Shown: piece by piece, positions 1 through 4,224 of the stretch | How positions within the stretch are numbered: position 1 is the first letter of the stretch | Layout: the number at the start of each line of letters is the position of its first letter | NCBI GenBank assembly: GCA_019454605.1 | Contig: JACFNZ010000001.1 | Location: 1-64,000 of the forward strand | DNA from: Candidatus Altimarinota bacterium | GTDB lineage: Bacteria; Patescibacteriota; Gracilibacteria; BD1-5; UBA6164 | Direction: 5' to 3' | Length of the DNA: 64,000 nt | Program-made: the position numbers and the translations under genes | Notes under the pieces: model-generated | What the model saw: the letters and a program-made list of their open reading frames with translations, nothing else | Told to the model about the DNA's origin: nothing | Databases searched by the model: none

Positions 1-16
1 ATAAGAAACATATTTA

Positions 17-428
17 ATAAGAGCATACATCTACGCATATTAAAAATATGTGAGGAAAGTCTGGACTCCAAGAGGGAAATTACAAAAGCTAACGGCTTTG
101 ATTGAGAAAATATAAGTATTAAATTTCTCAATACCACTAGTGCCACAGAGACAATACTATAAAGAGAAATCTTTAAAAAGGTGAAAAGTCAAAAAGTGTT
201 TTAAAAATTAATTATATAATTTTTTATATGTAAATATTTAAAGCTATTTTTGAAAAATTATAAGAAATTATAATATTTGGTAAACTGTGTATGGAGCAAT
301 GAGAATGGTATTTTTATAAATTACTCCCCTATTTTTTTATAAAAATATACTCAGCTTGAGGTTTTAGGTGACTAAAATCCTAGATAGATTGATGTAGAAG
401 TACAAAATCCGGCTTATTACTCTTATTA
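17..428 (+). ncRNA. rnpB: RNase P RNA (bacterial type)
   Basis: This is the catalytic RNA of RNase P, which trims tRNA 5' ends. The conserved core GAGGAAAGTCTGGACTCC (about 52-69) is followed by AGTGCCACAGAGACA near 139 and by GTAAACTGTGTATGGAGCAA near 281. The 3' core AGATAGATTGATG...AATCCGGCTTAT lies near 382-418. AATAAGAG near 17 pairs with CTCTTATT at 421-428 and forms the closing P1 helix, which sets both ends. The helices between these blocks are very AT-rich. The ends are approximate to a few bases. Confidence 0.93.
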
Positions 429-457
429 AATTTTTTTAGTTTATAGATTTTAAAGTA

Positions 458-1513
458 ATGAAAATAATTTTAGCTTGAATACAGTGATCTTGAAAATGAA
501 CTCAAGGAAAAATTTTAGAAAAAAAATATAATTTTAAAATATTTGATACTTGAGCACATATAAGAGAAATTTCTAAAGAAAATAGTGAAATATGAAGAGA
601 AGTAAAAGAGTTAATAGATGCTTGAAGATTAGTTCCAATTAATATACTTGAAAAAGTTTTTAAAAATTTCTTAGACAATCAATCAAGTGATGTTAATATT
701 GTTTTTGATTGAATCCCAAGAAATTTAGAACAAAAAGAGTTTTTTGATAGAATTGTTGATGATTTTAAAGTAATACATTTAAAACTAGATAAAAAAGAAG
801 CAGAAAATAGAGTTATTTGAAGAAAAATTTGTTTTTCTTGTCAAACAACTTACCCTAAAACATATGATCATAAATTTTGTGAAAGATGTTCTTGAAAAAT
901 ATGAGTAAGAGTTGATGATAGTGATGATAAAGCACTACAAAAAAGAATTGATATATTTGTAAATGAAACATTGCCTGTTATAAACTTATATAAAGAAGAG
1001 TGAAAAGTTATTGAAATAGATGCAACAAAAGATATTTCTAAAGTTTCAGAGGAAATAGAAGAAGTATTATGATTAAATACATTAAAAAAATATAAAATAA
1101 GAGAACTTGAATCAAATGAAAATGATATAAAAGATTTAAATAAATTATATGAAATATTTTGAAAGTGATATGAAGTTTCACCTAAAAATGTATATTTAAT
1201 AAATAAATCTTCTCGTGATTTTTTACTTTGATATGAAACTGATTGAAAAATTGTTTGAACTTTGAGTTTGTCAATATGTTTAAATGCATGACAAAACCCA
1301 TACTGAGTAATTGAAAATTTTTGTGTTTTAGATAATTATAGATGAATCTGAATTTGAAAGGCTTTAATGCAAGAAGCAGAAAATATTTCAAAAATGTTTG
1401 ATTGTTATAAAATAATGTTACTTTCAAATAAAAAACACACTGAATCTAACTCAATTTATTTAAAATTTTGATTTGAAAATGAATCAACTTTTTGATTTAA
1501 AAAATATATTTAA
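458..1513 (+). CDS. adk: adenylate kinase fused to a GNAT acetyltransferase
   Basis: The first ~205 residues are adenylate kinase (ATP + AMP = 2 ADP). They start MKIILAGIQGSGKGTQ, a P-loop in which several glycines are UGA, and include FDGIPRN. The LID domain carries a four-cysteine zinc knuckle (CFSC...CERC). From about residue 206 the chain continues without a stop into a second domain with NPYGVIENFCVLDNYRGIGI and GKALMQEAE, the acetyl-CoA loop of GNAT N-acetyltransferases. Ordinary Adk is ~215 aa; this protein is 351 aa. The acceptor of the acetyl group is unknown. The gene follows rnpB by 29 bases and heads a plus-strand run. Confidence 0.9.
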
Positions 1514-1525
1514 AATAATAACCTT

Positions 1526-2713
1526 ATGTTTTGATTTGAACTTTGAAGGGAATTTAAGCTTTCTATAGCAGAAATATTGTCTGCTTTTAAAAATAAAGAA
1601 GTATTTTTTGTAAATAAAAAAATACTTATTTTATCTTGAATTTCAAAAGATGAAATTTTAGAAAAATCAAAATTTTTATGAGGAACAATTAAAATTTTTG
1701 AGATCTTATGAAGTAAAAATACTAGTGAAAATCACAAAAAAGATATTGAAGAAATATTTTTAAACGATTTTTGAATTGAAAAATATATTTGAAAATTTAA
1801 TTATTGAGTAAATATTTTTTGAAATACAAGCCTAAAAACAGATGATTTATTAAAAGTTTCAAAAAATGCAGTAAAATCATTTTGATTAAACCCAAGATTT
1901 TTAAATCATGATAAAAAAAATTTATCTTCAATAGTTATTATAAAAGAAGCTTTAATTAAAAAAGAAACTGACTTTAATTTTTTATTTGTAGAAGATAAAT
2001 TATTTTTTTGAAAAACTATTTTTGTTCAAGATATTTATTCATATTCAAATAGAGATTATTCTAAATCAAGAGATATGAATGTTTGAATGCTTCCACCAAA
2101 ATTAGCTCAAATGATGATCAATTTATGAAATAATTTTTTAAAAAAAGATTTAGTTATTTATGATCCTTTTGTTTGACTTTGAACTGTTTTAATTGAATCA
2201 GTTTATATGTGAAATAAGTTAGTTTTTTGAAGTGATAAATCAGAAAGTATGGTGAGTTCTTCAACTAAAAATTTAGAAAAATTATTAAAAAATTTTAAGT
2301 TTGATTTTAAAATAATTAAGCAAAATGCTAAATATATAAATGAAGTAGATTTTTTAGATAAAGTAGATTTGATAGTTAGTGAATGATTTTTGTGAGAAAT
2401 AATGACAAAAAATAATATTTCAATTGAAAGAATAGATAGAAGTAAAAAAATATTGATTGATTTATATATTTCATTTTTTGAAAATTTAAAAAAAGTAAAT
2501 TATAAAAATAATATAGTTATTTCTTTTCCATTTTGGGATATAAAATGAAAATATTTGTTTTTTGATGAGGTTTATGATATAATAAAAAAAGATTTTTTAG
2601 TTATAAATTTACTAGAAAATAATACATTTCAATCAACCAAAGAGTGAAGTTTGCTTTATAAAAGAGATTCACAACTTGTTTGAAGAGAAATTTTTTTATT
2701 AAAATTAAAATAA
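1526..2713 (+). CDS. Trm11/TrmG10-like RNA guanosine methyltransferase
   Basis: A 395-residue S-adenosylmethionine-dependent RNA methylase, probably acting on tRNA guanosine N2. The central segment QDIYSYSNRDYSKSRD is followed by NVGMLPPKLAQMMINL. It matches the conserved block of the Trm-G10/Trm11 (UPF0020) family just before the methylase core. The SAM motif follows as YDPFVGLGTVLIE, with glycines encoded by UGA. The N-terminal ~150 residues occupy the place of a THUMP-like RNA-binding region but I see no clear motif there. The N/DPPY-type catalytic motif is diverged (VSEGFLGE at about residue 287). It starts 12 bases after the adk fusion, so they are likely cotranscribed. Confidence 0.75.
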
Positions 2714-2715
2714 AT

Positions 2716-4224
2716 ATGTGAAATAAAGTTATAACATTACAAAGTATATGACAAAAAGAAATAAAAGAAGATAGTGAGAGATTTATTGATATGAGTGACT
2801 TTTATGTAGAGGATTATAGGGAAATAATGAGGTATTTAAGGCCAATAAAAATAAATAATCTCGATGTTACAGTTCTTGATTTATTTAATATACCTTTAAC
2901 TACAGATGATGCTATTAAAGATTTTATTTTAAAAAGAACTTCTATTGATATTGATTCTAAAGAATGACTACAAAAAATTAATGATTTATTTAACAAGGCA
3001 ATTGATTTATATGAAAAAAGATATTTTAAAAAAATTCCTAAAAAAATACAAAAATTATATTTTAAAGATTCAAAACAAGTAATTAATTTTTTAAAAGAAA
3101 CAAAAACAAATAAGACTTCAGGAATTATAAGTTGTTCTATAGCTAAAATTTCTTATGCTATAAATGATATATTATTACATGATAAAATTAAAAGAGAATC
3201 ATTTTTAGATAGACAATTTATTAAAGAACATTTAGAATGACCTTTTCAAATAAGTGAAGCTTATGAGGATATCAATCAAAATATTTATAGAAATTGAAAG
3301 GTTGTTATATGAGATAGAATTATAAATTTTAAATTAATTGCAAGACAAAAATCAAAAGATTCTATTATTTGAAAGCAAATTTCTGATGCAAAATATTATT
3401 CTGTAGATGAATTTAAAGATATTGTTTGAGTTACTATATATGTTGACAAAGATGATGAAGCTGCACTTATGATGCAATATATTGACCAAATGATTTATAG
3501 ATGAAAAGCTGAAATAAAAAATAAAAATTGATTAAGTTTAAAAAAAGTAAAAAATACAACCTACTTAGAACAAGAATTTTATTTAAAATTAGAAGCAGAA
3601 ACAAAAAAGATAGAAAATAAAGAAGATGAGGGAGAAAAGGAATTTAAAGAAAGATCATCAACATTTGCCCCAGAAAAACAAAATGATAAAAAAAGTTCTT
3701 CAGCTAAAAATTATAAAGAAATAAAATTAGTTTGAAATGTATATTTATCTTTAGAAGAATGAACTAAATCATCTAAATTTCCAATTTGAACAGAAATAAA
3801 ATTTGTTGTTTGATGACATGATAATGAAAAAGGAATTGCATTACAAACAATTTATGATTATATAAAAAAATTTAGAGAATTAACTCGCCTTTGAATTCCA
3901 ATAAGGGAAATTGATTTAATAAATTATGTAAATGATTTTTTTGAAAATATTGATTTTTATCTAAAAAAGAAAAATAAAGAAAAACACAATTATTATAATG
4001 AATTATTACATGATTTTACTGAATTTTGATATTTAGATAAAGAAATTACATTAAATTGAAATATAGAAAATAATGAAAAAATATTAGCTTTATGATTATT
4101 AAATCATTTTAGAGCAAACCTAGTAAAAATAAAAATGCCTAACTCTACTAAATTTTTTTATTTTGATAAACATATTTTATCATTAAGAGATGCTTGATTA
4201 TTTAAAGAAATAAAAAAAATTTAA
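2716..4224 (+). CDS. large protein with a diverged RelA/SpoT-like nucleotidyltransferase region
   Basis: A 502-residue soluble protein that I do not firmly recognise. Residues ~195-250 read KLIARQKSKDSIIGKQ followed by DEFKDIVGVTIYV. This resembles the RelA/SpoT synthetase core (R-x-K-x-x-x-S-I-x-x-K ... D-I-x-G-x-R-I). Later, TEIKFVVGGHDNEKGIA could correspond to the E-x-Q-I block. A charged low-complexity stretch (about residues 290-345) splits the domain. The canonical NGYxxIH segment is not visible, so enzymatic activity is doubtful. It starts 2 bases after the preceding stop and ends before a hairpin terminator. A full-length RSH protein is encoded separately at 9227-11521. Confidence 0.45.

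What the first reader, a model, noticed from the sequence alone, without database searches (positions are those of the whole stretch)
458..1513. Adenylate kinase-GNAT acetyltransferase fusion
A complete Adk with zinc LID runs straight into a GNAT domain with an intact acetyl-CoA loop. Fusing nucleotide balance to an acetyltransferase is unusual. It suggests local coupling of adenylate state and acetylation, or nucleotide-linked toxin or antibiotic modification.
Basis: partly seen in the sequence, partly recalled or inferred. Interest (0 to 1): 0.6.

Follow-up and report, generated by a model that had tools for sequence, protein, structure and literature searches.

The report
Adenylate kinase fused to an acetyltransferase
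In a small group of uncultured Gracilibacteria the only copy of the essential adenylate kinase gene has a second enzyme, an acetyltransferase, joined to its end; the join is real and conserved, but what the acetyltransferase acts on is unknown.

Summary
Window 458-1513 is one 351-residue frame: residues 1-207 are a complete zinc-LID adenylate kinase, residues 209-351 a GNAT domain with an intact acetyl-CoA loop (RGIGIG). There is no stop or usual start codon between the domains, and it is the only adk found in a 99%-complete genome. Three other assemblies of the same family (two genera in all) encode the same 351-residue fusion at 61-80% identity. It was absent from 349 other genomes of the class and from a 380-genome phylum sample. 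The four adk domains form one clade among zinc-LID kinases, whereas two genomes of the same genus carry a different, cysteine-free, unfused adk, in one of them just upstream of the same methyltransferase gene. The nearest stand-alone GNAT found is a Paenibacillus protein (39%). Most likely this is a bifunctional enzyme: housekeeping kinase plus a GNAT of unknown substrate. Coupling of adenylate state to acetylation is possible but untested; toxin or antibiotic modification has no specific support. It is a lineage-specific fusion of known domains. Seen in passing: a primary sigma factor fused to an adenylate-kinase-like domain in two related genomes.

The parts
458..1513 (+). adk-GNAT fusion gene, 351 aa, genetic code 25
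   Evidence: single open frame; full-length relatives in three other genomes
458..1078 (+). adenylate kinase domain, residues 1-207
   Evidence: Pfam ADK 5.5e-27; all E. coli Adk catalytic residues checked are aligned; AF2 pLDDT mostly 65-92 and Foldseek to zinc Adk structures 5g3z and 2xb4
476..502 (+). P-loop GIQGSGKGT, residues 7-15
   Evidence: sequence; invariant in four fusions
830..889 (+). zinc-LID cysteines C125, C128, C141, C144
   Evidence: four cysteines in all four fusions, none in genus-mates G001 and G002
1082..1510 (+). GNAT acetyltransferase domain, residues 209-351
   Evidence: Pfam Acetyltransf_1 1.6e-14; GNAT core fold in a low-confidence model, best Z 10.0
1340..1357 (+). 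acetyl-CoA pyrophosphate loop RGIGIG, residues 295-300
   Evidence: sequence; R295, G296, G298, G300 invariant in the four fusions
1313..1315 (+). beta-4 acidic residue E286 (E or D in the four copies)
   Evidence: alignment; role inferred from GNA1-like enzymes
1457..1459 (+). Y334, candidate general acid
   Evidence: invariant in the four fusions; role inferred
15..432 (+). RNase P RNA (class A) just upstream
   Evidence: Rfam RF00010, 110.9 bits, full length
1526..2713 (+). downstream RMKL/UPF0020-type methyltransferase, frequent neighbour of adk in the family
   Evidence: Pfam; synteny survey

Best explanation
A bifunctional protein. The N-terminal part is the cell's only recognised adenylate kinase and still does the housekeeping reaction ATP + AMP = 2 ADP. 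The C-terminal part is a working GNAT acetyltransferase with its own, unknown amine or protein substrate. It probably arose when a GNAT gene came to lie between adk and the methyltransferase gene and was joined in frame. The joined gene, carrying a zinc-LID kinase, now occupies the usual adk site in one small lineage of Gracilibacteria. Shown: one frame, intact catalytic motifs in both halves, conservation in four genomes of two genera, sole adk, and a different unfused adk beside the same methyltransferase in a genus-mate. Inferred: both activities, the GNAT substrate, the order of events, and any cross-talk between the domains.
For: Single frame. Sole Adk match. Catalytic residues K13, R36, D84, R88, Q92, R119, R123, R156, D158, D159, R167 (E. 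coli numbering) all kept. GNAT loop and C-terminal motif invariant. Four genomes. Estimated dN/dS below 1 for both domains in all pairs (0.12-0.14 for the closest pairs). Adk tree: fusions form one clade (100/100) in a zinc-LID group of 18 rows (100/98); uniting the four genus-g1 adks is rejected, p-AU 9e-05. In the methyltransferase tree G000, G003 and G001 are together (SH-aLRT 100). Nearest stand-alone GNAT found: Paenibacillus WP_152404378.1, 39% over full length, against at most 45 bits for any other GNAT in the class.
Against: No biochemistry. The Adk half scores 150.9 bits, below the TIGR01351 cut-off of 168. The GNAT half was modelled poorly (mean pLDDT 57.8) from four sequences. dS is near saturation. 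Insertion between two genes is inferred from synteny, not seen in an intermediate: no genome with adk and this GNAT as separate neighbours was found. Copies G003 and G022 hold in-frame TTG or ATG codons from which a shorter GNAT could in principle start.
Confidence: 0.68

Rival explanations
1. Regulated acetyltransferase: nucleotide binding and LID closure in the Adk half change the activity of the GNAT half (or the GNAT acetylates lysines of its own Adk), so acetylation follows the ATP/AMP state. This is a special case of the bifunctional reading.
For: In other bacteria a ligand-binding domain N-terminal to a GNAT regulates it: cAMP in mycobacterial Pat, amino acids in ACT-GNAT enzymes (PMC6434083). 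E. coli Adk lysines are reported as acetylated, some by the GNAT YiaC (PMC8843374). The linker is short.
Against: No test of contact or allostery: the full-length model has pTM 0.51 and an ill-defined GNAT half. The Adk half keeps all catalytic residues, as expected of an enzyme, not of a pure sensor.
Confidence: 0.2
2. Plain co-expression: two independent enzymes share one chain because two genes of one operon were joined by chance, with no functional link. Also a special case of the bifunctional reading.
For: Rare and confined to one clade; compact genome with adk closely followed by the methyltransferase gene in many relatives.
Against: All four copies keep the same length without insertion, deletion or split, though this is weak evidence for a link.
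Confidence: 0.45
3. The GNAT half modifies a toxin or antibiotic.
For: Weak similarity to aminoglycoside and other resistance GNATs in profile and fold lists.
Against: Scores are far below every such model's cut-off (for example 25.2 bits against 140 for AAC(6') group E, 27.8 against 350 for AAC(2')-Ia), and the same weak matches are made to RimI, PhnO and others; resistance GNATs are common among solved structures. No resistance or toxin gene among the adjacent genes.
Confidence: 0.06
4. Artefact: missed stop, chimeric assembly or two separate genes.
For: Gene lies 457 bases from a contig end.
Against: Four assemblies, same length and junction; TGA falls on invariant glycines; complete RNase P RNA upstream.
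Confidence: 0.01

Closest known systems
Zinc-containing bacterial adenylate kinase (Pfam PF00406; structures 5g3z, 1zin, 2xb4)
   Same: P-loop, AMP site, four-cysteine LID, all catalytic residues checked
   Different: carries a 143-residue GNAT domain at the C-terminus
GNAT acetyltransferases (PF00583/PF13508), nearest stand-alone match Paenibacillus cellulositrophicus WP_152404378.1
   Same: 39% identity over full length; shared CL.A..PY..I.N and GFKKY motifs
   Different: stand-alone there, next to a NUDIX gene; its acetyl-CoA loop is a less typical HRSRNIG
Class I-beta regulated protein acetyltransferases (mycobacterial cAMP-Pat, ACT-GNAT AAPatA; PMC6434083)
   Same: layout: ligand-binding domain N-terminal, GNAT C-terminal
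   Different: the N-terminal domain here is a whole enzyme and the sole housekeeping kinase; no regulation shown; substrate unknown
Stand-alone cysteine-free Adk of most other sampled Gracilibacteria of the family
   Same: same position before the methyltransferase gene in many genomes
   Different: another Adk lineage, no LID cysteines, no GNAT

Membership tests
Adenylate kinase (PF00406, zinc-LID type) | Pfam gathering score | tested here: met
   95.2 bits against 26.8
Adenylate kinase (PF00406, zinc-LID type) | NCBIfam TIGR01351 adk cut-off (a naming threshold, not a catalytic feature) | tested here: not met
   150.9 bits against 168; best match of that library, covering profile positions 1-211 of 212
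Adenylate kinase (PF00406, zinc-LID type) | catalytic residues and four LID cysteines | tested here: met
Adenylate kinase (PF00406, zinc-LID type) | kinase activity and zinc content | not testable with these tools
   needs protein
GNAT superfamily | Pfam gathering score | tested here: met
   54.6 bits against 20.7
GNAT superfamily | acetyl-CoA loop R/Q-x-x-G-x-G/A | tested here: met
   R295-G-I-G298-I-G300; R295, G298 and G300 invariant
GNAT superfamily | GNAT fold | tested here: inconclusive
   low-confidence model; best Z 10.0, rmsd 3.9, 96 residues aligned
RimI, PhnO, AAC or other named GNAT subfamily | NCBIfam equivalog cut-off | tested here: not met
   best 29.3 bits against 86.4 for rimI; others lower relative to cut-off
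Class I-beta regulated acetyltransferase | effector binding changes acetylation | not testable with these tools
   needs assays

The most novel reading that the evidence does not exclude
An acetyltransferase regulated by, or acting on, the housekeeping adenylate kinase to which it is fused, so that protein or metabolite acetylation follows the adenylate energy charge.
Probability: 0.2. Interest if true: 0.65.

Novelty: new variant of a known kind. Interest (0 to 1): 0.38.

Why it matters
Adenylate kinase is an essential and normally single-function enzyme in bacteria. A conserved fusion of the sole copy to an acetyltransferase is a ready-made test of whether energy charge and acetylation can be joined in one protein. 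It also shows a core gene, adk, being of two different lineages at one site within what is classed as one genus.

Tried and rejected
Missed stop, separate start or assembly error: rejected by code 25 and four assemblies. Phage or plasmid origin of the fusion: no full-length match in phages, plasmids or viral contigs. Search for a split adk plus GNAT intermediate in the class: none found. Viral-contig scan for GNAT relatives to deepen the structure alignment: no relatives. AlphaFold of the whole protein and of the GNAT domain: Adk good, GNAT poor, with only four rows in the alignment. Literature: no paper found in the held library on an adenylate kinase-GNAT fusion; subscription papers are not held, so this is weak evidence of absence.

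Full report
Setting. The window is the start of contig C6 of a 1.0 Mb, 99%-complete genome. Its genes read only with TGA = Gly: 88% of glycine codons in 21 window genes are TGA and G+C is 21%. The named relatives that carry the same gene are 'Candidatus Gracilibacteria' MAGs, so the source is a Gracilibacteria-type organism.

Window 458-1513 is one frame of 351 aa. Residues 6-182 match Pfam ADK (5.5e-27) and 240-339 match Acetyltransf_1 (1.6e-14). Aligned with E. coli Adk, every catalytic residue checked is kept: P-loop with K13, T31, R36, D84, R88, Q92, R119, R123, R156, D158, D159, R167. The LID has four cysteines (125, 128, 141, 144) as in zinc-type Adks; the AlphaFold model of this half is good and its closest solved structures are adenylate kinases, zinc-containing ones among the best. 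The GNAT half has the acetyl-CoA loop RGIGIG, an acidic residue at 286 and an invariant Y334. Its model is of low confidence, yet the core aligns with GNATs (Z up to 10.0, rmsd 3.9, 96 residues).

It is not an artefact. Three other assemblies in the same family (G003 in the same genus; G022 and G030 in another) carry a 351-residue fusion with no gap anywhere in the alignment (80, 62 and 61% identity). The window gene has no usual start codon in residues 185-260. Both domains show dN/dS below 1 in all pairs, though dS is near saturation. The genome has no other Adk match and one other GNAT match.

Distribution. A profile of the four fusions found Adk in 332 of 353 genomes of the class, but the full-length match only in these four; in a 380-genome sample of the phylum only in the window genome. 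No full-length match was found in phages, plasmids or viral contigs. Genomes outside this phylum could not be sampled broadly.

History. The four fused Adk domains are one clade (100/100) inside a group of 18 zinc-LID Adks (100/98) that includes an unfused Gracilibacteria Adk (G016) and Adks of other families of the class; all other sampled Adks of this family are cysteine-free and lie elsewhere. G001 and G002, assigned to the window's own genus, have the cysteine-free, unfused kind; a tree uniting the four genus members is rejected (p-AU 9e-05). Yet the methyltransferase gene directly downstream groups G000, G003 and G001, and in G001 the unfused adk sits directly before it. So two different adk lineages occupy one site in close relatives. 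Replacement by transfer, or an ancestral fusion later replaced in G001/G002, are both open. In G022 and G030 a short unrelated frame lies between the fusion and the methyltransferase gene. In unfused relatives the methyltransferase gene often follows the adk stop closely; in G000 and G003 the GNAT sequence lies between, so insertion of a GNAT gene at this junction and in-frame joining is the simplest origin (inference). The nearest stand-alone GNAT found is from Paenibacillus (39%, full length); other GNATs of the class are far weaker (45 bits at best). The search for GNATs outside the class was limited to plasmids, phages, viral contigs and solved structures, so this does not identify a donor.

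Mechanism. Most likely the kinase half does the cell's adenylate kinase reaction, since no other recognised adk is present, and the GNAT half acetylates an unidentified substrate. Whether the halves talk is open. The layout recalls regulated acetyltransferases with an N-terminal ligand-binding domain (cAMP-Pat, ACT-GNAT; PMC6434083), and E. coli Adk lysines are reported as acetylated, some by the GNAT YiaC (PMC8843374), so both allosteric control and self-acetylation are testable; neither is shown. Antibiotic or toxin modification is not supported: all named GNAT models are matched far below cut-off and adjacent genes are unrelated.

Verdict. A real, conserved, lineage-restricted fusion of two known domains: a new variant of a known kind, of moderate interest. 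In passing, the two sampled genomes of another order of the class encode a full primary sigma factor (regions 1.1 to 4) with an adenylate-kinase-like domain at its C-terminus, beside a normal adk elsewhere in the genome; that domain has altered AMP-site and LID arginines and may be a nucleotide-binding sensor. It may deserve its own study.

Noticed in passing
L093 1640-3529 (-) and L092 1779-3668 (-); genomes G231 and G089: A complete primary sigma-70 factor (regions 1.1, 1.2, 2, 3, 4) fused at its C-terminus to an adenylate-kinase-like domain (629 aa, 88% identical between the two genomes). The P-loop is kept, but the AMP-site arginine (R36 position) and LID arginines are altered; both genomes also have an ordinary adk. 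Possible adenylate-sensing sigma factor; no paper found.
   Followed up: partly
window 15-432 (+): RNase P RNA gene of class A directly upstream of the fusion.
   Followed up: no
window 458-1513 and 20 other window genes: TGA has nearly replaced GGN as glycine codon: 25 of 26 glycines in the fusion, 88% over 21 genes.
   Followed up: partly
L018 1480-2766 and L023 790-2124: Two adk genes in tandem in genomes G056 and G064 of a neighbouring family.
   Followed up: no
G357:C15:9189-9815: Adk match inside a 487-residue open frame, possibly another Adk fusion in the phylum.
   Followed up: no
window 2680-4224 (+): A protein of about 500 residues with no Pfam match, kept next to the methyltransferase gene in G000, G003, G022 and in unfused G001.
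   Followed up: no
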